A stretch of 64,000 bases of DNA from an uncultured Saprospiraceae bacterium. Lineage in GTDB: Bacteria > Bacteroidota > Bacteroidia > Chitinophagales > Saprospiraceae. Location: the NCBI GenBank assembly GCA_937922815.1, contig CALAJP010000135.1, positions 1-64,000 of the forward strand. Reading direction: 5' to 3'. Each line of letters opens with the position of its first letter. Position 1 is the first letter of the stretch. Made by a program: the position numbers and the translations under genes. The notes under the pieces are model-generated. The model had not been told where the DNA came from, ran no database searches, and worked only from the letters and a program-made list of their open reading frames with translations. Positions 1-19,246 of this stretch are shown here, in pieces.

Positions 1-3000
1 TGTATGTTACACAACCTAATGCATCTACATCATAAAAACCTTGGCCGTTATTACCAGCTATATTGCTCCTACCTCCTGAACATGATTCTATACTTAATGG
101 CCCAGCACTCACCCAACTCGTATCTACACACAATTCCGTACTCTCTCCTCCTTCTACTGTCGTCTCTGGATATACTTCCGATCCACTCGTGTCTATTAAA
201 ATAATTGCTAATGTTTTATTACACATTCCATTTGTATCACACACCTCAATACACAAAGTATCGATTAATTTAGTAGGATTTACATTAGCAGTATATGTTG
301 CACAGCCATCTACGTCCACTTTATACGTTCCTTGTTCATTGCTTCCATTTATATTGGAAGTACCTCCGCTACAACTTCTAATAACTGCAGGACTAGCTTC
401 TACCCATCCCGTATCTATACATATTTTAACTGAATCCCCTTCATCTACAGGTGCAGATACATACTCTATACAACCATTCAGTAAAGAATCTAATGCATAA
501 TTTAACCCCTGTCCTGATAAACTATCCACCAAGAGAGGAACTCCATTTGTTCTAACTATACCACTTAATCGATTGCTAAGAATTGACGATACGCCAAATA
601 AATCGCCCCCTTCTCTTGCATCTGGACACCCGTCAGCATCGCTATCCAAGTCATACCTATTTATTATCCCATCTTCATCTCCATCTAAACCTATAATCTC
701 AAAGTTAACATTCGAAACTTCGCCACTTTCTACAAATACCGTAACATAATTAGCTCCTTGCTCCAATACTACTTGATAATCTTTAGTGGGGGTTGTTGTT
801 GAAATTCGCTCACTAGTAATTGTATTCGGAGATATATCATCTCCATCTGCTGTTGTTCCTACTCTAAAGCCAGCCATACCTGATATGGTACCTCCTGTTA
901 ATCGAATCAAATAATTTCCCGATAACGGTGTATTTATTACAGGTAAGTTAATGAAATTCATCCCCGCTCCTGCTGGATCAGATAGACCTCCTGTCTGATA
1001 TGATATTGAATAATCTTCTATACTGTCTAATATTCCATCATTATCATCATCTAAATCATTAACGTCTGCCACATCATCATTATCGTTGTCTTTTAAATAA
1101 GTAGCAAAAGTAAAATAGTTTCCATCTGAAATATCTATTCCTGACTCGCCAGATGCTATTTCCCAATTACCCCCATTTAATACAAGACTTTTTTCTGTAG
1201 TCCCTCCATTAGTGAAGTCTCCATCATCGTCTATCAATATATAGATACTACCATATTCTGTTGGTATCTTCGTACCAACAGTCGATAAACTTGAAGGGAT
1301 AGATGGATATACTTCTCCAATCGTTCCTGTTTCTTGTACTTTCCATACACGTTCTAGTATGCCCCTACCTTCTGGTGCTCCTGTATCTGTCCATGACGAT
1401 ATAGGAAGCCCATTATTTGACCAAACCATATATGATACATCTGACGATATATCGCTTCTTATTGATGTGTCTACATTCGATGCCGTAAAATTATTGTCTA
1501 TCGCAAAAGTCACTAAGCCAGAATCATTAACCGACTTAGATATACGTTGATGTAACCGTGTTGTATCATCACGTCCTATTCCTGCTATATCATAATTATA
1601 TACACCTGCTTCACTAGCGTCCCATATAATACTATCTCCCATACTTGACACATAATCCGAAGCCGTGCTTTGATCTAACGTTATTCCATACTTTATTGCT
1701 AAATAAGACTCTATCTGATTACGTTTGTCTATATTACTACCATTATACAGAATCATCTCTGCTACTTCTCCATTCAGATGACGTTTCGTTTCGCTTATAC
1801 TACCTATACGCAAATATTTCACCTCATTACCTTCATGGTTACGCTGTTCACTATGCCCATTTAATTCACCCCCACTATTTAAAAACATTTTTTTAATCCC
1901 ATCTGTTAAATCTAATGCATCACCTCCATCATAAAATGCAGAAAACAAATTGTTACTCGTTATAGATACATTACTTATTTTATCATTACTATCATTTCCA
2001 CCAGAGGACGGGGGCGATCGATGTAATAACCTTATCCTAGATGCACTATTGTATCCCAATACAATCGCATTAGTGTCTGTGGGTTCTGTTTTCGTGGCAT
2101 TCAAAAATGTAGTATTATCTGCATCTGTATAACCTACCATGTATATCGAATACCCATCATTAAAAGAGTTATCATTTAGTTCAAATACATCAAAATATTC
2201 AGTATTAGAATTATTAAATGCTATTGTAGGGTTATAATTCGTAGTCGCTGATTGACTAAGTCGTTCAGGTCTAAAGCTATCGTCGTCCTGTGCAATAGTA
2301 TAACCATTATTAGAATTATCCACCCATTCAGATACGCCTTGCCCCATTTCTGTTACTCCGGCATCAGCTCTTAACCATAACTCTAAACCTATAGGTTCTC
2401 CTCCTGGGCTTGGTTTTATATCACCTATTACCAAATCTGAATTATCCCCTAAGTTTTGTCCCGCAGGAATTATTGTTGAGGTGCTACTTAGACCAAGAGT
2501 GTCTGTTACGTTAGATGATATTATATTTTTTACGGTTAAGTCTGGTGATAAATCAAACTCACCTACCGTATAGGTACCACATATTTGATTAGAAGCAGTT
2601 GGAGGTATATTGTCATCTCCATCAAAAATTACAATATAATCTGCATCTTCATTACCTGCATAGTTTGTCATACTACCAACAATAGCTATTCTTCCATCTG
2701 GTAGTTTTACCATATCTGCCAAGGAATTAGTAGTTATCGAGGAATACCCCATATTAAAAGTAGTATCAAGTGTTCCATCATCATTGACTCTTACTAAGCC
2801 GTCTTGATTTGACGTAGGTGTATTAGTTGCAAGAAAAAGAAAAGTATTATTAGGCTCTGCGATTATTTTTGACACATCATATTCCATTGTAAAGTCAGGC
2901 ATAAGGTTCTCATCTAGAGAACCATCCGCATTTAAAATAGCAAAGTAACTAAACCCTACGTTACCTCCATAACGTAAAAAATTGCCAGTAACTGCTATTT

Positions 3001-6000
3001 TCCCATTTGGAGCTATAGCAATATCTCTATTTACGAGAACACTACCGTTGTTTGACGGATTGAACTCATGTGTTAAATTAAAAGTTGTATCAAGACTACC
3101 ATCTGCATTAAGACGACCTACATACTTGCGATTAGGGTCACCGTTAATTGTAGTAAAATTGCCAATAAAAGCTATTTTTCCATCGGAACCTATATCCGCA
3201 GCATATATCATTGTATTTGAAGGAAACACGGGTGGAGTAAAAGTCAAATCTAGAGATCCGTCTGCATTCAATCTAGCTATTTTAGAGAATTGCGTATTTC
3301 CTCGTATTTCAGGAAAATTTCCAAATATATATAGTTTACCATCTTTATCCTCTATTACTTCGCTTACTACATAATTCGTCGATAAACCATTCTGAAAGGT
3401 TGAATCTATTGTTCCGTCTTGGTTATAACTCACAAGTCCTGTCAAGTCAGCTTCAAAATCAACCTTTACATCATGAAGTAGTATTTTACCACTTCTTCTA
3501 ATAAAAATAGATCTTGTTGAAACAGTTCCTCTATTCATCTGGAATGTAGTATCCACCGTCAAATCTGTATTCAATCGATACAAATCCCTACCTGGAAAAC
3601 CTCCAAAATCTACAAGATTAGTGCCATAAATCAAAATTTTACCATCGTCCTGCACTGCTACGGATTCAAGAATAGCCCTGACAGAGGGAGTAACTATAGC
3701 AGTAGTATCATAACTAATATTACCTCTAATTATTGGAGAAAGAGGTCCTGATAGATTGACTGTCCCTCCAGCATCTAATTCTACCTCCATAGTAGATGGA
3801 GATTGTAAATCAGTATCAAAAGTAGCACAAATTTCGATTTGATCTCCTTCTACATAATTACTATCTGTAGTAGGAGAAGTAAAACTAGTAAGCGTGGGGG
3901 GTTCTATATATTTTGCTAAAGTAAATGTCACACTATCTGGCAATGTATTACTTGTGGTAAATTCTCCGTCAGCATTTAATGCTCCCAGTACTGTTACTCC
4001 ATCTGAAAAATCGCCATTGGGTGTTGTAATTACACTCCAACTATCATCATATCCTTCAAATTTCAAACTTATATTTTGATCAAAACTACTCGTACGATCT
4101 ACTTTCCACTCTCGCGAAATACGGGTATTTAAACCCGATGCTGCTGCGATTTCAGTCGTTTGAATTTCTAGTTCTCCCTTAGAAGCTATCATCAAAAACT
4201 GTAAATCGTTTGTATGTTCGGTCATACGAGCGGTAGTATCACTATTGGCAGCCACAAAATCAGCGTCTAATGCTAGAGTTAATATAGCATTAGAATCCAC
4301 AGACTTGGATACACGTTGATTTAATCCGGAAAGGTCATCTCTTCCTATTCCAAATATACGCTGAACATAATCATCTCCATCGTTTTTCCAAATAATACTG
4401 CTATCACTTGCCAAATAGTCCGTAGCTGTGGTCTGATCCAAAGTCATTCCATATTTTATCGCCAAGTAGGATTCTATCTCTTGACGTTTGGCTAAATTGT
4501 TGCCATTGTATAGAATTATTTCGGCTATTTCTCCATTTATATGACGCTGTGTTTCGCTAATACTACCGATACGCAGATACTTCACCTCATTGTCTTCGTG
4601 GTTACGTTGATCACTATTTCCATCTAATTCTCCACCACTGTTCAAAAACATTTTTTTAACCCCAGCATCTCCATCATAAAACGCCGATAACAAATTGTTA
4701 TCCGAAGTAGAGACATTACCAATCTTATCATTACTCGTATTTCCATTTGAAGAAGGAGGAGCTCGATGTAATAACCTTACCCTAGAGGCATTATTATACC
4801 CCAATACAAAGGCATTAAGTTCTGTCGGTTCTGTTTGGGTGGCATTCAAAAACGTAGTATTATCTACATCTGTGTATCCTACTATGTACATCGAATATCC
4901 GTCATTAAAAGAATTATCATTTAATTCGAATACATCAAAATATTCAGTATTTGTAGTATCAAAAGCTATAGTAGGGTTAAAGTTCGTACTTGCCGATTGG
5001 CTAAGTCGTTCGGGCCTAAAACCATCATCGTCTTGACTAACGACGTACTGATTACTAGTATTATCTAACCATTCCGATACGCCTAGTCCTGCCTCGGTAA
5101 CCCCTTGGTCTGCTTTGAGCCACAACTCTAAACCATTTTTTTCTCCTGCAGGAGATGGTCTCCCTATTACCAAATCTGCATTATCTCCTAAGTTTTGACC
5201 CACAGGGATTGTAGTTACGGTACTTTCAACCCCCAATTCATCGAATATATTAGACTCTAATATATCTGTAACCGTCAAATCAGCACTAAAATCCATCTCC
5301 CCTACGGTATATATGCCACAGATTTGATTAGAAGCAGGAGGGGGCGTATTAGCATCTCCATTTAATATTGTAACATAGTCTATATCTTCATTTCCGTCAT
5401 AATTTTCAAAACTACCAGCTAGAACCATTCTTCCATCAGATAGTTTTTCGACATAAACTATAGTCCGATCGACAAAATCTCCATTGACAATAAAAGTTTC
5501 GTCATAGCTTCCATCTGGATTGAGCCTAACTATACCTTCTTGACCGCCAGGAGCAGCATTCGGAAAACGTCCCGCAAAGGTAAAGGTACCGTCAGGTTCT
5601 GCAAGTACTGATCTTAACCGATTAGTGCCTGTATCATTTGTAAATGTCCTTAATGGTATAAAGTTTTCATCTCTAGTCCCATCAGGATTTAAGAGTCCTA
5701 TTCCATCTAAAACGGAAACACCGTCGAAGTCTGTAAAAACACCTACAAAAGCAATTTTTCCATTAGGTCCTATAGCTAAAGATTCGACAAAACCAGGAAC
5801 AGGAAGAATATAGGGTGGAGCAAAACCCATGTCTAAACTTCCGTCTTCATTAAGACGTGCTAAACCAAATCGAGGAACTCCATTAACAGACGTAAATCCC
5901 CCTCCTATAATTATTTTTCCATCAGGTGATAATATTCCGTCATATATAGCTTGATTGAATGTAGGAGGGACAAAAGTATCATCTATTGTTCCGTCAGGAT

Positions 6001-6892
6001 TTAATCGAGCTATATAATCAAGATTAGGATTGTCTCCGTAATTAGTGAAGTTCCCGAATATATATATATATCCATTTTTATCTACCATGATGTCCTGTAC
6101 GGTATTATTCACTATATTGAAACCACTCTCGAAGCTTGTATCTAATGTACCATCACTATTAAGTCGAATAAGCCCAAATCCTGTTGGAGTTGAAAACCGA
6201 CCTCCTACATAAATTTTACCATTAGGCATTACATGAATAGCTAGTACCTCCATACTAGTTCCGCCGCCACTAAAATTAAAGTCTTTTATAAATGTATCAT
6301 CTCTAGAACCATCGGGGTTTAAGCGTACTAACCGATCAAGGTTATTCTGACCGTCGTATCCAGTAAAATTTCCTCCAATTAAAATTTTATCATCGGGTTG
6401 TACTCCTATTACTGTAGTAACACTTGTGAAATTAGGAACAGTTGCAGTCCCATTAATATTACCACCTATCATACCTTTCAAAGGTCCCGATAGGTTAACA
6501 ACTCCTCCTGCATCTAATTTTACCTGCATTCTTGAGGGGGCTTGTATGTCCATATCAAAAGTAGCACAAACTTGTATTTCATCTCCTTCTACATAATTAC
6601 TATCTAAAGTCGTTGTAGAGAAGCTAGTAAGTGCCGGTGAAACTAAGTCCTCAGTAAAAACTAAGGTTGAACTATCATTTAGAGTTGAACTAGGTTCTAT
6701 TTCACTGTTAGCATCGAACAAAAGGTCTTTTTCCTCATAATGATCAAATTCAAACAAGTCTGAATTAGAATAAATTTCATTATAAACAATATCATCTCCT
6801 TTAGCCCTAAAAACGTCATGAGCTATATATTGAGCGTTTACAAAAGTATAATTTAACAAAATTATACTCAGAAATAGTTTTGAGATTTTCAT
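1..6892 (-). CDS. Giant exported Delta-60 propeller / LamG-lectin surface protein (C-terminus beyond the window)
   Basis: A single open frame runs from the ATG at 6892 to the left edge (at least 2297 residues); I read it through and met no stop, and the frames at both ends agree. It starts with a signal peptide (MKISKLFLSIILLNYTFVNA, then Q). Residues ~85-145 look Ig-like. Residues ~160-513 hold seven DGKI..GxF..LNxDGSxDxxF repeats (Delta-60 type). Residues ~588-935 are LamG/DUF8202-like, with LELWLKAD and IESYLAIKYG motifs. The whole arrangement recurs at ~1000-1860. Asp-rich, calcium-binding-like stretches follow at ~1932-1953 and ~2067-2093, then Cys-containing ~97-residue repeats from ~2131 to the edge. 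Such proteins in Bacteroidota are usually secreted by the type IX system and act as adhesins or gliding/surface proteins. The sorting domain would lie off the window, so that route is inferred. Confidence 0.93.
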   Translation of the reverse strand, partial: MKISKLFLSIILLNYTFVNAQYIAHDVFRAKGDDIVYNEIYSNSDLFEFDHYEEKDLLFDANSEIEPSSTLNDSSTLVFTEDLVSPALTSFSTTTLDSNYVEGDEIQVCATFDMDIQAPSRMQVKLDAGGVVNLSGPLKGMIGGNINGTATVPNFTSVTTVIGVQPDDKILIGGNFTGYDGQNNLDRLVRLNPDGSRDDTFIKDFNFSGGGTSMEVLAIHVMPNGKIYVGGRFSTPTGFGLIRLNSDGTLDTSFESGFNIVNNTVQDIMVDKNGYIYIFGNFTNYGDNPNLDYIARLNPDGTIDDTFVPPTFNQAIYDGILSPDGKIIIGGGFTSVNGVPRFGLARLNEDGSLDMGFAPPYILPVPGFVESLAIGPNGKIAFVGVFTDFDGVSVLDGIGLLNPDGTRDENFIPLRTFTNDTGTNRLRSVLAEPDGTFTFAGRFPNAAPGGQEGIVRLNPDGSYDETFIVNGDFVDRTIVYVEKLSDGRMVLAGSFENYDGNEDIDYVTILNGDANTPPPASNQICGIYTVGEMDFSADLTVTDILESNIFDELGVESTVTTIPVGQNLGDNADLVIGRPSPAGEKNGLELWLKADQGVTEAGLGVSEWLDNTSNQYVVSQDDDGFRPERLSQSASTNFNPTIAFDTTNTEYFDVFELNDNSFNDGYSMYIVGYTDVDNTTFLNATQTEPTELNAFVLGYNNASRVRLLHRAPPSSNGNTSNDKIGNVSTSDNNLLSAFYDGDAGVKKMFLNSGGELDGNSDQRNHEDNEVKYLRIGSISETQRHINGEIAEIILYNGNNLAKRQEIESYLAIKYGMTLDQTTATDYLASDSSIIWKNDGDDYVQRIFGIGRDDLSGLNQRVSKSVDSNAILTLALDADFVAANSDTTARMTEHTNDLQFLMIASKGELEIQTTEIAAASGLNTRISREWKVDRTSSFDQNISLKFEGYDDSWSVITTPNGDFSDGVTVLGALNADGEFTTSNTLPDSVTFTLAKYIEPPTLTSFTSPTTDSNYVEGDQIEICATFDTDLQSPSTMEVELDAGGTVNLSGPLSPIIRGNISYDTTAIVTPSVRAILESVAVQDDGKILIYGTNLVDFGGFPGRDLYRLNTDLTVDTTFQMNRGTVSTRSIFIRRSGKILLHDVKVDFEADLTGLVSYNQDGTIDSTFQNGLSTNYVVSEVIEDKDGKLYIFGNFPEIRGNTQFSKIARLNADGSLDLTFTPPVFPSNTMIYAADIGSDGKIAFIGNFTTINGDPNRKYVGRLNADGSLDTTFNLTHEFNPSNNGSVLVNRDIAIAPNGKIAVTGNFLRYGGNVGFSYFAILNADGSLDENLMPDFTMEYDVSKIIAEPNNTFLFLATNTPTSNQDGLVRVNDDGTLDTTFNMGYSSITTNSLADMVKLPDGRIAIVGSMTNYAGNEDADYIVIFDGDDNIPPTASNQICGTYTVGEFDLSPDLTVKNIISSNVTDTLGLSSTSTIIPAGQNLGDNSDLVIGDIKPSPGGEPIGLELWLRADAGVTEMGQGVSEWVDNSNNGYTIAQDDDSFRPERLSQSATTNYNPTIAFNNSNTEYFDVFELNDNSFNDGYSIYMVGYTDADNTTFLNATKTEPTDTNAIVLGYNSASRIRLLHRSPPSSGGNDSNDKISNVSITSNNLFSAFYDGGDALDLTDGIKKMFLNSGGELNGHSEQRNHEGNEVKYLRIGSISETKRHLNGEVAEMILYNGSNIDKRNQIESYLAIKYGITLDQSTASDYVSSMGDSIIWDASEAGVYNYDIAGIGRDDTTRLHQRISKSVNDSGLVTFAIDNNFTASNVDTSIRSDISSDVSYMVWSNNGLPISSWTDTGAPEGRGILERVWKVQETGTIGEVYPSIPSSLSTVGTKIPTEYGSIYILIDDDGDFTNGGTTEKSLVLNGGNWEIASGESGIDISDGNYFTFATYLKDNDNDDVADVNDLDDDNDGILDSIEDYSISYQTGGLSDPAGAGMNFINLPVINTPLSGNYLIRLTGGTISGMAGFRVGTTADGDDISPNTITSERISTTTPTKDYQVVLEQGANYVTVFVESGEVSNVNFEIIGLDGDEDGIINRYDLDSDADGCPDAREGGDLFGVSSILSNRLSGIVRTNGVPLLVDSLSGQGLNYALDSLLNGCIEYVSAPVDEGDSVKICIDTGWVEASPAVIRSCSGGTSNINGSNEQGTYKVDVDGCATYTANVNPTKLIDTLCIEVCDTNGMCNKTLAIILIDTSGSEVYPETTVEGGESTELCVDTSWVSAGPLSIESCSGGRSNIAGNNGQGFYDVDALGCVTY
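1490..3900 (-). repeat. Second copy of the ~2.7 kb intragenic tandem duplication
   Basis: This is the C-terminal copy of the Ig-like / propeller / lectin module. It matches 4250-6645 at an offset of about 2745 bases (915 codons); for example, CAAATTGTTA occurs at both 1946 and 4691. Similarity is strongest in the lectin part (about 1630-2600 against 4390-5340), where DNA as well as protein is alike. The propeller parts have diverged more. Boundaries are approximate because they were judged from protein similarity. Confidence 0.8.
4250..6645 (-). repeat. First copy of the ~2.7 kb intragenic tandem duplication
   Basis: This is the N-terminal copy of the module duplicated in the giant surface protein. 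It begins at the sequence encoding YVEGDEIQVCATFD (about residue 99), whose partner YVEGDQIEICATFD is encoded near 3870. It ends after the lectin-like domain. The in-frame offset (a multiple of three) keeps the reading frame through both copies. Confidence 0.8.
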
Positions 6893-7695
6893 TTCAACAA
6901 GTTTGTGCTTTATTATATTTTATATTCAGATAGCTTATTAGGAGCTTATTTTTTATTAATAGTAAATACTCTTTAAAAAGTAATCTTGTTTCGATATAAA
7001 GAAAGATTCATATAATAAACCTTCGAAATAGTCGGGCTTTATCAATAAAAAACCAACAATCTATCCCGTCATGATATATACATTAATAATACTTTTCAAA
7101 AAAAAGGAGAAAAGCAATTTATTTCTAAACAACGAGATATTTCCTGTATATACAATGTGATTGAAGAATAAAAATGTAATTAACTAAAAAAAACAAGACT
7201 TTAAACAAAAAGATAACATATAAATTACGCACCCAAAAAGTATGCCGAAAGGGTTCTTTACATTAAAAAAATTAACTTTATGCTTAATTTATCTTAAGTT
7301 TAGACAAAAAAATCCACTTCATTCGTGAGATTGAATTTCATACCTAAGAGGATTAAGAGAAAATAGCTTGATTCTTTTACAAGAAAACTTATGTTTTACG
7401 CTTCATGTAAAAAAGGAAATTAACTACGAAAAGCAGTTACAATATATATCAAATACGACACTGATTACTGATGAGTTTATTGTTATAATTAGACAAAGTC
7501 TCTCCGAAGATAAAATTTCACTCAAAAGCAGTTGAAAGGTACACAACAAGTGACAGCAATTTGTAAAAAAAATAAGCAGCATAAATTCAAAGAACTCATG
7601 CTGCTCAATTTTTTCTTAGCAGAATTTTTTTAAACCATATTTTATGGTTTTAGACCTTATTACGAATTGGGTTGAATGAGAAAAAAATAGGAGCT
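6893..7695. other. Gene-free AT-rich intergenic region between the giant surface gene and fabD
   Basis: About 800 bases with no convincing reading frame on either strand and no tRNA-like fold that I could see. It contains the leader of the minus-strand giant gene at the left. At the right it holds a fabD-side terminator hairpin (7565-7605) and a partial copy of a dispersed repeat (7657-7700). The middle (about 7000-7550) shows nothing recognisable. Confidence 0.6.
7565..7605 (-). terminator. Terminator downstream of fabD
   Basis: AGCAGCAT (7575-7582) and ATGCTGCT (7598-7605) form an 8-bp stem. Read on the minus strand the stem is followed directly by a T-rich run (complement of 7565-7574), which fits termination of the bshC-fabD transcript. 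Confidence 0.6.
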
Positions 7696-7700
7696 TTATA
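7657..7700. repeat. Partial third copy of the dispersed intergenic repeat
   Basis: TTATTACGAATTGGGTTGAA and the following ~24 bases resemble one end of the inverted repeat at 20834-20971 and 26677-26814 (TTATTACGAATTGAGTTGTA, then A/T-rich AAAAATAG). Only about 43 bases are shared and the palindromic centre of the longer copies is absent. It runs a few bases into the 3' end of fabD. Confidence 0.5.
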
Positions 7701-8574
7701 TAGCCGTTAAATTAACTTTTCTATTAATTCTCAGAATCATCCCTTTTAGGACTTTTCCATTTCCTCCTACTTCTACAAACGAATCTACCCCGTCAGCCAA
7801 CATATTTTGAACCGTTTGAGTCCATCGAACGGGTGCCGTTAATTGTTTAACCAAATTATCTTTTATAACAGCTGCGTCAGTAGTTGGCTTCGCATCAACG
7901 TTTTGATAAATCGGACAAATTGGAGTATTAAATGTAGTTTCTAAAATTGCTTTACTTAACTGTTCTTCTGCAGGTTTCATTAACGGAGAATGGAATGCTC
8001 CTCCTACATTCAAAACAACGGCCATTCTTGCTTTTGCTTCTTTTGCTTTCTCAACAGCCAGATTAACTCCTTCTATTGTTCCTGAAATCACTAATTGACC
8101 TGGGCAATTATAATTAGCTGCCACCACAGTTTCTTCCGTTATACTTGCACAAATATCTTCAACTACCGCATCTTCTAAACCTACGATTGCAGCCATAGTA
8201 CTTGGCGTTACTTTACAAGCTTCTTGCATCGCTTCAGCACGTTGAGCTACTAATTTCAATCCCGTTTCAAAATCTAACGCTTTTGCAGCAACTAAAGCAG
8301 AAAATTCTCCTAAAGAATGTCCAGCCACTGCATCCATCGATAAATCATCAGCCAATAAAGCACGAATTACAGAATGTAAAAAGATTGCAGGTTGAGTTAC
8401 ATTTGTTTGTTTCAATGCTTCCTCATCTCCCGTCAACATGATTTCTGTAATATCAAAACCTAATATTTCATTGGCTTTTTTTAATAAATCCTGAGCTGCT
8501 TGGGAATGATCAATCAACGATTGCCCCATTCCTACGAATTGAGCTCCTTGTCCTGGAAATACTAATGCTTTCAT
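7696..8574 (-). CDS. fabD: Malonyl-CoA:ACP transacylase
   Basis: Transfers malonyl groups from CoA to acyl carrier protein, supplying extender units for fatty-acid synthesis in the cytosol. The 292-residue length is normal for FabD. The N-terminal FPGQGAQ motif, nucleophile Ser87 in GHSLGEFSAL, Arg112 in the QRAEAM motif that holds the malonyl carboxylate, and His195 in AFHSPLM are all present. It lies 24 bases downstream of bshC on the same strand and probably shares a transcript with it. The product and symbol are secure. Confidence 0.97.
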   Translation of the reverse strand: MKALVFPGQGAQFVGMGQSLIDHSQAAQDLLKKANEILGFDITEIMLTGDEEALKQTNVTQPAIFLHSVIRALLADDLSMDAVAGHSLGEFSALVAAKALDFETGLKLVAQRAEAMQEACKVTPSTMAAIVGLEDAVVEDICASITEETVVAANYNCPGQLVISGTIEGVNLAVEKAKEAKARMAVVLNVGGAFHSPLMKPAEEQLSKAILETTFNTPICPIYQNVDAKPTTDAAVIKDNLVKQLTAPVRWTQTVQNMLADGVDSFVEVGGNGKVLKGMILRINRKVNLTAI

Positions 8575-15920: not shown

Positions 15921-16940
15921 ATGCCAAATCAAGACCATCTTCAAAAAGATATTTTAAGTGATCGTAAGGCTGACCATATCGACTTAACTTTTAAAAGTCA
16001 AGTCTCAAACCAAGACGAACGTTTTTATTACGAACCCATGTTAAATGGTCATCCGACTGAAAACGAAACTTACCCTGTTAACATCATTCATAAGCAATTA
16101 AATTTTCCAATCTGGGTTTCTAGTATGACAGGGGGTACACAACATGCTAAAAATATCAACCAAAGATTGGCAAAAGCATGCGGAGAATTTGGTTTAGGTA
16201 TGGGACTGGGATCATGTAGGCAATTACTACACGATGATACCCATTTAGAAGATTTTGCAGTTCGAAAATATATCGGCAACCAATACCCCTTATTTGCAAA
16301 TTTAGGAATTGCTCAAGTTGAAGAAATTATTTCCGAAGGAAATTATTATAAACTAACCGATTTAATTGCTAAACTACAAGCCGATGGATTAATTATCCAC
16401 ATCAATCCGATGCAAGAGTTTATGCAACCTGAAGGAGACCGCATCAAATACTCCCCTATCGAAACGGTTAAACGGGTTTTGGATAAAATTAAATTCCCAA
16501 TTATTATTAAAGAAGTAGGTCAAGGCTTTGGTCCAAAAAGCTTGGCAGAATTAATGAAACTTCCATTGGCAGCTATCGAATTTGGTGCAGCAGGCGGCAC
16601 TAACTTTTCTAAATTAGAAATGATGCGTGGTGACAATACTCACAATTCATTTGGCGGATTTACAAAAATAGGACATACGGCGGGCGAAATGGTAGACTTT
16701 ATCAATAAGATTATCCAAAATAAAAACTACATTTGCAAAGACTTTATCGTTTCGGGTGGCATCAAGGATTTTTTAGATGGATACTATCACATCAATAAAT
16801 TATCTGCAAACGCAATTTATGGACAAGCGTCTGGATTTTTGAAACCCGCTTTGGTTTCTTACGAATTGCTTCAACAACATATTCAAACCCAAACCAAAGG
16901 TCTAGTGATGGCAAAGTCATGCCTTGACATCAAACATTAA
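15921..16940 (+). CDS. fni: Type 2 isopentenyl-diphosphate delta-isomerase
   Basis: An FMN-dependent enzyme that interconverts isopentenyl and dimethylallyl diphosphate at the end of the mevalonate pathway. The 339 residues show the family hallmarks: an N-terminal RKADHIDL segment, VSSMTGG near residue 68, GSCRQLL, the INPMQEFMQPEGDR segment, the IIKEVGQGFG strand with its Lys, AAGGTNFSKLE, and VSGGIKD. It is followed at 44 bases by HMG-CoA reductase and then a GHMP kinase, which supports an isoprenoid operon. Confidence 0.94.
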   Translation: MPNQDHLQKDILSDRKADHIDLTFKSQVSNQDERFYYEPMLNGHPTENETYPVNIIHKQLNFPIWVSSMTGGTQHAKNINQRLAKACGEFGLGMGLGSCRQLLHDDTHLEDFAVRKYIGNQYPLFANLGIAQVEEIISEGNYYKLTDLIAKLQADGLIIHINPMQEFMQPEGDRIKYSPIETVKRVLDKIKFPIIIKEVGQGFGPKSLAELMKLPLAAIEFGAAGGTNFSKLEMMRGDNTHNSFGGFTKIGHTAGEMVDFINKIIQNKNYICKDFIVSGGIKDFLDGYYHINKLSANAIYGQASGFLKPALVSYELLQQHIQTQTKGLVMAKSCLDIKH

Positions 16941-16984
16941 CTTGACAGATAGTTTCGCACTATAAGGAATTAAAAATTTTATCC

Positions 16985-18325
16985 ATGCAACAGAAGGTTT
17001 TGGCATCTTCAGGTCTAATTTCTGGGTTTTCTAAAAAATCGAAATCCGAAAAAATAGAATGGTTACTCAATAACTATGGCACAAATGTGCAATCCAAAGA
17101 AATTTTAGAAGAATTTTGGGTTAGTAATATCGACCTACAATCTACTTTTGACGGTTTTTCTGAAAATACAATTTCTAATTTTATTATTCCCTTCGGAATT
17201 GCTCCCAACTTTGTTATCAATGATAAAAGTTACGCAATACCGATGGCTATTGAAGAAAGTTCGGTAGTTGCGGCAGCTTCATCTGCTGCAAAATATTGGA
17301 TGACGAGAGGTGGATTCAAAGCTCAAACCATCAACACCACTAAGATTGGACAATTACATTTCCGTTGGAATGGTAGTTTTGATTTATTGAAACAAAACAT
17401 GCCTCAGATTAAAGAGTATATTATTCGTTCTTTGCGTGGAACGACAACCAACATGGATAAACGTGGAGGCGGTATTCTAAATATAGAAGCCAAAGAGCTT
17501 CCTGCTGTCGATACTAATATTTATCAATTACTCTTTAGTTTTGAAACCTGCGATTCGATGGGTGCAAACTTCATTAATTCTGTTTTGGAAGAAAGTGGGC
17601 ATTTATTAAAATCCTATTTTTTGGCAGAAAACGCATTCAAAGGAGCAGAAAAAGAGTGCGAAATAATCATGGCTATTTTGTCAAATTATACGCCCGACTG
17701 TACCGTAAAAGTAGAAGTTTCTTGCCCTTTTGATAAACTTGGAAAATTTGAAGGAGAAAGAGATGGGCAATATTTTGCCGAAAAATTTCATACTGCTGTT
17801 CAAATTGCCAAACACGACGTATATCGTGCAACAACTCACAACAAAGGGATATTTAATGGTATTGATGCCGTAGTATTGGCTACTGCAAATGATTTCAGAG
17901 CGATAGAGGCTAGTGGACACGCTTATGCTTCGAGAGATGGACAATATAGAAGCTTGACAGACAGTTCAATCGAAAATAAAGAACTGAAATTTTGGATTGA
18001 AGTTCCTTTAGCACTGGGTACGGTTGGTGGCTTAACAAACTTACACCCTTTGGCAAAACTTTCTTTAGATATTCTAGGAAATCCTTCTGCTAATGAGTTG
18101 ATGCAGATTATTGCAACTACTGGTTTAGCTCAAAATTTTGGTGCGGTACGTTCTTTGGTGACTACTGGCATACAAAAAGGACATATGAAAATGCATTTGA
18201 TGAATATTTTGCAATTTTTATCCGCCAATGATTATCAAAAAGAAGAAACCGTTAAATATTTTCAAGATAGAATAGTATCTTTTACTGCCGTGAGACAATT
18301 TTTAGATTCCATAACACCTTCATAA
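16985..18325 (+). CDS. mvaA: Hydroxymethylglutaryl-CoA reductase, class II type
   Basis: Interconverts HMG-CoA and mevalonate. The 446-residue soluble protein has the catalytic Glu in MAIEESSVVAAAS (about residues 88-100), the CDSMGANFIN segment, the NDFRAIEASGHAYA block with the catalytic Asp, and a C-terminal GHMKMH that supplies the catalytic His. It has no membrane anchor, like other bacterial class II enzymes. Sitting between idi-2 and a GHMP kinase, it most likely works in the biosynthetic direction. Its stop codon is immediately followed by the ATG of the kinase. Confidence 0.94.
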   Translation: MQQKVLASSGLISGFSKKSKSEKIEWLLNNYGTNVQSKEILEEFWVSNIDLQSTFDGFSENTISNFIIPFGIAPNFVINDKSYAIPMAIEESSVVAAASSAAKYWMTRGGFKAQTINTTKIGQLHFRWNGSFDLLKQNMPQIKEYIIRSLRGTTTNMDKRGGGILNIEAKELPAVDTNIYQLLFSFETCDSMGANFINSVLEESGHLLKSYFLAENAFKGAEKECEIIMAILSNYTPDCTVKVEVSCPFDKLGKFEGERDGQYFAEKFHTAVQIAKHDVYRATTHNKGIFNGIDAVVLATANDFRAIEASGHAYASRDGQYRSLTDSSIENKELKFWIEVPLALGTVGGLTNLHPLAKLSLDILGNPSANELMQIIATTGLAQNFGAVRSLVTTGIQKGHMKMHLMNILQFLSANDYQKEETVKYFQDRIVSFTAVRQFLDSITPS

Positions 18326-19246
18326 ATGGAGAAAAAATTTCACGCTCAAGGTAAACTATTACTGACAGGAGAATATTTGGTAATGGATGGAGCAGAAGCC
18401 CTTGCATTACCGTCCCAATTGGGGCAACGAATGACGGTTAATAAAAATGAGAATTCATTTTTGGAATGGAAAAGCTGGACGATTGATAATTTCTGTTGGC
18501 ATGAAACTATTTTTGATTCAAATTTTAAAATCTTAAAAACCAATAATCAACCTGTTGCTGAAACGCTACAACAATTATTTGTATTAGCCACTAAAACTTC
18601 AAATGTAGATATTGCTTATTCCTCGGTCGATACCTATTTAGAATTTGACCAAGAATGGGGCTTGGGTAGTAGTTCAACTTTGATTAGTCTAATGGCACAA
18701 TGGTTAGAGGTATCTCCTTACCGCTTACAGTTTTCTGTTTTCGGAGGTTCTGGTTATGATATTGCCTGCGCAGATGCGAAAAGTTCCATTCTTTATCAAG
18801 TGAATAATAAAACCCCAAATGTAAAAGCGGTTAACTTCTCTCCTACTTATATCGAGGATATTTATTTTGTTTATCTTGGTAATAAACAAAATTCTAGAAC
18901 TGGAATTAAAAATTATACTTCTCAAAAGAAATTAGCTACAAATCTACCTGAGCTAATTAAACGAATAACCGAAATTAGTAATAAAATTATCTTACAGAAT
19001 TGTTCTAAGAATCAATGTATTGCATTACTCACAGAACACGAACAAATAATCAGTTCCTTGATGAATATGCCGAGCATCAACGATACCTTATTTTCTGGAT
19101 TTGATGGCGTAGCTAAATCTTTAGGTGCTTGGGGTGGTGATTTTGTAATGCTTGTTTCTAATCTTCCTCAACAAAAAACGTTAGAATATATTGAGAATTT
19201 AGGATTACAAGCTTCTAGTAAAGTAAAAAGTTCTTTAATTTTTTAG
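18326..19246 (+). CDS. GHMP kinase (GYDIA type), mevalonate-pathway associated
   Basis: 306 residues with an N-terminal GKLLLTGEYLVMDGA segment, the ATP-binding GLGSSSTLISLMAQWL loop near residues 112-127, and GGSGYDIACA near 139, features of the GHMP kinase superfamily. The start codon abuts the HMG-CoA reductase stop with no spacing, so translation is probably coupled. By context it should phosphorylate mevalonate or phosphomevalonate. The sequence alone does not say which, so no specific gene symbol is given. Confidence 0.88.
   Translation: MEKKFHAQGKLLLTGEYLVMDGAEALALPSQLGQRMTVNKNENSFLEWKSWTIDNFCWHETIFDSNFKILKTNNQPVAETLQQLFVLATKTSNVDIAYSSVDTYLEFDQEWGLGSSSTLISLMAQWLEVSPYRLQFSVFGGSGYDIACADAKSSILYQVNNKTPNVKAVNFSPTYIEDIYFVYLGNKQNSRTGIKNYTSQKKLATNLPELIKRITEISNKIILQNCSKNQCIALLTEHEQIISSLMNMPSINDTLFSGFDGVAKSLGAWGGDFVMLVSNLPQQKTLEYIENLGLQASSKVKSSLIF

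What the first reader, a model, noticed from the sequence alone, without database searches (positions are those of the whole stretch)
1..6892. Giant surface protein with a 915-codon in-frame tandem duplication, missed by edge-limited ORF calling
An open frame of at least 2297 residues on the minus strand runs off the left edge. Most visible plus-strand ORFs in the first 6 kb are its shadows. It repeats an Ig-propeller-lectin module at an offset of about 2745 bases. The lectin part is more alike between copies than the propeller part, so either selection differs or gene conversion has acted on one part.
Basis: partly seen in the sequence, partly recalled or inferred. Interest (0 to 1): 0.6.

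Follow-up and report, generated by a model that had tools for sequence, protein, structure and literature searches.

The report
Surface protein: propeller nested in Ig domain
A giant, probably cell-surface, bacterial protein carries two old copies of a building block in which a seven-bladed propeller is inserted into the middle of an immunoglobulin-like domain and followed by a lectin-like domain; it is an unusual arrangement in an otherwise familiar class of secreted adhesin-like proteins.

Summary
A minus-strand frame of 2297 codons (window 2-6892, ATG, no stop) runs off the left edge, which is also the contig end, so no DNA exists further left. It holds two diverged in-frame copies of a ~912-residue module (53% identical). 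Other Bacteroidota have the same Ig domain uninterrupted; no second split case appeared in some 900 sampled genomes. Gene conversion is not supported: synonymous sites are about equally saturated everywhere, and only non-synonymous change varies (dN 0.14 in the lectin core, 0.59 in the propeller). The domain after the lectin is as divergent and may have been exchanged. The likely missing 3' end is contig C64: it begins mid-repeat in frame and ends in a type IX (type B) sorting domain, giving about 3,270 residues or more. That join is inferred; the contig ends do not overlap and synteny gave no support. Best reading: a T9SS-exported adhesin-like protein. A new variant of a known kind, of modest interest.

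The parts
2..6892 (-). Open frame of 2297 codons, 3' end cut by the contig edge
6830..6892 (-). N-terminal hydrophobic stretch MKISKLFLSIILLNYTFVNAQ, read as a Sec signal peptide (aa 1-21)
   Evidence: sequence; judged by eye, no predictor run
6479..6640 (-). Copy 1, N-terminal half of the split Ig-like domain (aa 85-138)
5333..6478 (-). Copy 1, seven-bladed DUF5122/delta-60 propeller (aa 139-520), inserted in the Ig-like domain
5153..5332 (-). Copy 1, C-terminal half of the split Ig-like domain (aa 521-580)
4403..5152 (-). Copy 1, lectin-like (LamG-type) core (aa 581-830)
3905..4402 (-). Copy 1, post-lectin domain 'tail1' (aa 831-996)
3740..3904 (-). Copy 2, N-terminal half of the split Ig-like domain (aa 997-1051)
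2594..3739 (-). Copy 2, seven-bladed propeller (aa 1052-1433)
2408..2593 (-). Copy 2, C-terminal half of the split Ig-like domain (aa 1434-1495)
1640..2407 (-). Copy 2, lectin-like core (aa 1496-1751)
1097..1639 (-). Copy 2, post-lectin domain 'tail2' (aa 1752-1932)
467..1096 (-). Asp-rich, calcium-binding-like DxDxDG segments and spacer (aa 1933-2142)
   Evidence: sequence; paralogous segment in contig C126
2..466 (-). About one and a half ~97-aa Cys/Asp repeats (aa 2143-2297) that run off the contig; same repeat family as contigs C64 and C126

Best explanation
This is the 5' part of a gene for a giant surface protein of a Bacteroidota bacterium, exported by Sec and then by the type IX secretion system. 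Its N-terminal part carries two tandem copies of a unit made of an Ig-like domain, a seven-bladed propeller inserted into a loop of that Ig domain, a LamG-type lectin-like domain and a further domain. The insertion came before the duplication. After duplication the lectin core and Ig halves kept most residues, while the propeller and the last domain changed freely, so binding by the lectin is probably the conserved task and the propeller, held out sideways on the Ig scaffold, the variable one. The rest of the protein, probably on contig C64, is a stalk of ~97-residue repeats and calcium-binding-like segments ending in a type B sorting domain. Shown: open frame, duplication, nesting in sequence, propeller fold, even synonymous saturation. 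Inferred: surface location, adhesion, the C64 join.
For: ORF and duplication. Nesting: a profile of the two joined Ig halves (A2) matches uninterrupted Ig domains over its full length in three other genomes (positions 2-113, 2-117, 2-111, 3-117; E 3e-6 to 7e-5), all in frames of 2,759-3,734 codons, while in the window it matches only as two separate halves per copy; a same-family relative is found in G841 at E 1e-12 with the widened profile (sequence). The intact domains are Big_5/Big_12-like. The AlphaFold model of copy 1 places the propeller at protein residues 139-520 only (best match Z 27.4, rmsd 3.8 over 340 residues, to the CylK propeller). DUF5122 occurs in this genome only in this ORF. 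Codon tests. T9SS: 41 matches to the type B sorting domain (36 over the curated cut-off) and SprA at 1924 bits in this genome. C64: 895-codon frame open at its contig start, same repeats, CHU_C/TIGR04131 at its end.
Against: The intact-Ig matches come from a two-sequence profile at modest E-values. The model of copy 1 has mean pLDDT 64 and the Ig halves are at low confidence, so their packing into one domain was not seen. The lectin+tail model failed (pLDDT 32). The contig ends of C135 and C64 share no overlap, and fabD and PNP are not neighbours in relatives, so the join has no independent support. No function was tested.
Confidence: 0.7

Rival explanations
1. Gene conversion has homogenised the lectin core between the copies, while the propeller escaped.
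For: Lectin core 77% identical against 41% in the propeller; sliding windows at aa 646-735 have dS near 0.5.
Against: Identical-codon fraction at same-residue positions is 0.605 in the lectin and 0.614 in the propeller (Fisher p 0.91); no run of 20-80 such codons is unusual in shuffles (p 0.46-0.99); dS is 0.93-1.18 in all parts, near saturation. Old conversion, before saturation, cannot be excluded.
Confidence: 0.07
2. The propeller is not nested: two short separate domains happen to flank it.
For: Pfam and NCBIfam give no Ig hit to the halves or to the joined sequence; the predicted model does not resolve the Ig part well.
Against: Uninterrupted domains in other genomes match the joined profile end to end and align across the junction; the break falls at the same place in both copies.
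Confidence: 0.1
3. The domain after the lectin (tail) was exchanged in one copy after duplication, so the module is a mosaic. This is an addition to the best explanation, not an alternative to it.
For: tail2 matches a tail of another genome (113 bits) and one on contig C194 of this genome (77 bits) better than it matches tail1 (53 bits); tail2 groups with these at 99/97 and 99/95 support; identity drops from 77% to about 32% at aa ~830.
Against: A tree with tail1 and tail2 as sisters is not rejected (AU p 0.31); tail1 is a long branch.
Confidence: 0.4
4. The window frame ends soon after the contig edge and C64 belongs to a different gene.
For: No sequence overlap between contig ends and no conserved neighbourhood.
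Against: Among the own-genome matches, the other open-ended repeat frame (C126, 1817 aa) has its own copy of the segment that precedes the repeats; C64 is the one that starts in the middle of a repeat.
Confidence: 0.2

Closest known systems
DUF5122 / delta-60 repeat propellers (Pfam PF17164, TIGR02608)
   Same: Both propellers match these models (PF17164 273 bits, nine stretches; TIGR02608 219 bits) and the model of copy 1 is a seven-bladed propeller.
   Different: In the relatives fetched, no propeller was flanked by Ig halves like these; here each is inserted in an Ig-like domain and repeated with a lectin-like domain.
T9SS type B surface proteins (CHU_C PF13585 / TIGR04131 carriers)
   Same: Long repeat protein, signal-peptide-like start, same C-terminal repeat family as C126 and C64 proteins that end in this sorting domain.
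   Different: The sorting domain itself lies on another contig; the join is inferred.
Bacterial Ig-like domains Big_5/Big_12 (PF13205, PF19078)
   Same: Intact homologues of the split domain match these families, one above cut-off and the others weakly.
   Different: The window's own halves match no Pfam family, and the domain is interrupted by about 380 residues.
Tandem LamG-type lectin + tail arrays in giant Bacteroidota frames (up to 8240 codons in G221)
   Same: Same lectin and tail units in tandem; the lectin core is found in 64 of 298 genomes of the order.
   Different: Those fetched have no propeller or Ig halves between the lectin-tail units.

Membership tests
DUF5122 / delta-60 repeat (PF17164, TIGR02608) | Score above the curated cut-off | tested here: met
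   272.9 bits against 27; 218.7 against 76.5
Seven-bladed beta-propeller | Seven repeated blades closing one propeller | tested here: met
   Seven blade-length segments in each copy; model of copy 1 matches WD40-type and CylK propellers over model residues 55-436; mean pLDDT 64 is a caution
Big_5/Big_12 Ig-like domain | Pfam score of the window's halves or their join above cut-off | tested here: not met
   No match at E up to 1; the relation rests on profile matches to intact domains that are Big-like, so it is called Ig-like only
LamG / ConA-like lectin | Pfam or NCBIfam match of the window's own segment | tested here: not met
   No match; homologous segments in G221 match Laminin_G_3 at 63 bits, so it is called lectin-like only
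T9SS type B cargo | C-terminal CHU_C/TIGR04131 sorting domain | tested here: inconclusive
   Frame ends at the contig edge; domain present on candidate continuation C64
T9SS type B cargo | Secretion system encoded in the genome | tested here: met
   SprA 1924 bits; 41 TIGR04131 matches, 36 over the cut-off
T9SS type B cargo | Sec signal peptide | not tested
   The N-terminus looks like one by eye; no predictor available

The most novel reading that the evidence does not exclude
A whole seven-bladed propeller has been grafted into one loop of an Ig-like domain, making a sideways display unit that was then duplicated together with a lectin-like domain; a nested architecture found nowhere else in the genomes sampled.
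Probability: 0.6. Interest if true: 0.4.

Novelty: new variant of a known kind. Interest (0 to 1): 0.3.

Why it matters
Domain databases see only the propeller here; the Ig-like domain escapes them, being both divergent and cut in two. It shows a way to hang a large fold off a surface stalk without breaking the stalk, and gives a natural pair of copies for asking which parts of such adhesin-like modules are under constraint. The finding is modest: giant repeat proteins of this type are common in Bacteroidota.

Tried and rejected
Gene conversion as the cause of uneven similarity: not supported by codon evidence. C126 as the continuation of the frame: rejected, it carries its own copy of the segment before the repeats. 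Linkage of fabD and PNP as a test of the C135-C64 join: the two are not on a shared stretch in 60 relatives, so uninformative. Contig-end overlap: none. Structure of lectin plus tail: model failed, pLDDT 32, not searched further. PDB sequence search with the module profile: no match. Viral contigs: no relative. The one genome-contig scan gave only a distant propeller relative in a Saprospiraceae MAG. Plasmids: none. PHROGs: none. Weak Pfam hits to viral and other families in the lectin and C-terminal parts are below cut-off and taken as chance. Papers: one mention of DUF5122, as a modelled repeat family (PMC8078820); none for the phrase 'delta-60 repeat', and none holding all terms searched for a nested Ig-propeller; the library covers open-licence papers only. 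Separate acquisition of the two propellers: less likely, they match each other at 192 bits and the best outside propeller at 99; blade-by-blade scores favour the same register for blades 3, 4, 6 and 7 but not for 1, 2 and 5.

Full report
Observation. The minus strand from 6892 to 2 is one open frame of 2297 codons starting at ATG. Two copies of a module lie in tandem, aa 85-996 and 997-1932, 53% identical in protein.

Anatomy. Each copy holds, in order: the first half of an Ig-like domain, a DUF5122 propeller of seven blades, the second half of the Ig-like domain, a lectin-like core, and a further domain called tail here. That the Ig-like domain is one domain cut in two rests on this test: I joined the two halves in a profile and searched other genomes. 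In this genome the profile matches as four separate halves; in G373, G617 and G586 it matches end to end in uninterrupted domains inside long frames, and the alignment runs through the junction. A widened profile finds an uninterrupted relative in a genome of the same family, G841, at 1e-12. The intact domains are Big_5/Big_12-like. The predicted structure of copy 1 puts a propeller at model residues 55-436, between the Ig halves, but the Ig halves themselves are at low confidence.

How widespread. The Ig profile was run over 298 genomes of the order, 395 of the phylum and 398 of the family, overlapping sets of some 900 distinct genomes. No second split case appeared. Sampling is partial and the profile narrow, so absence is not proof. 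The lectin-like core is common: 64 of 298 genomes of the order hold it, often as lectin-tail tandem arrays, in frames of up to 8240 codons. DUF5122 in this genome occurs only in this frame.

Uneven divergence. Non-synonymous change is 0.14 in the lectin core, 0.24 and 0.26 in the Ig halves, 0.59 in the propeller and 0.71 in the tail; synonymous change is 0.93 to 1.18 throughout, near saturation. Among positions with the same residue, the identical-codon fraction is the same in lectin and propeller (p 0.91), and no local run stands out. This favours different amino-acid constraint over recent gene conversion. The propellers are nevertheless each other's best match (192 bits against 99 for the best outside one), so the whole module was most likely duplicated after the insertion. 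The tails behave differently: tail2 matches tails elsewhere better than it matches tail1 and groups with them at 99/97, though a sister pair is not rejected. One tail may have been exchanged.

The missing end. The frame stops inside a family of ~97-residue repeats. In this genome the same repeats occur on C64, C126 and C19. C126 has its own copy of the segment before the repeats. C64 begins in the middle of a repeat and runs 895 codons to a CHU_C/TIGR04131 sorting domain. Its first repeats are 86% identical to each other over 232 nt, the kind of place where assemblies break. Counting repeat positions, at least ~77 residues are missing between the two, giving about 3,270 residues or more. The contig ends do not overlap and neighbouring genes are not linked in relatives, so this is inference.

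Function. The genome encodes SprA and many type B sorting domains, so surface export is likely. A lectin-like domain kept under strong constraint beside a fast-changing propeller suggests glycan binding as the lasting role. Nothing here tests that.

Verdict. The nested Ig-propeller unit is the interesting part.

Noticed in passing
L009 (contig C126) 1-8051: Two neighbouring T9SS type B genes (1817 and 776 aa) share the C-terminal repeat family of the window protein; the first is cut at its 5' end by the contig start.
   Followed up: partly
L010 (contig C19) 501-4148: A complete 1215-aa protein with one unit of the same repeat family and a type B sorting domain, after many other repeats.
   Followed up: no
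L027 (contig C194) 1-3435: A second lectin-tail protein in this genome, one of whose tails is closer to tail2 of the window than tail1 is.
   Followed up: partly
G000 contig C103, 8944-25089: A 5812-codon frame with a lectin-like match and a type B sorting domain, larger than the window protein.
   Followed up: no
window 6893-7695: About 800 bp without an ORF of 100 aa between the giant gene and the fabD-like gene (7696-8574), with a terminator-like hairpin just after the latter (by eye).
   Followed up: no
window 15921-19246: Adjacent genes that look like type 2 isopentenyl-diphosphate isomerase, HMG-CoA reductase and a mevalonate-pathway kinase (read from the translations, not searched).
   Followed up: no
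L031 (contig C7 of G031), L032 (contig C4 of G016): Closest outside DUF5122 propellers found, in ORFs of 782 and 488 aa.
   Followed up: partly
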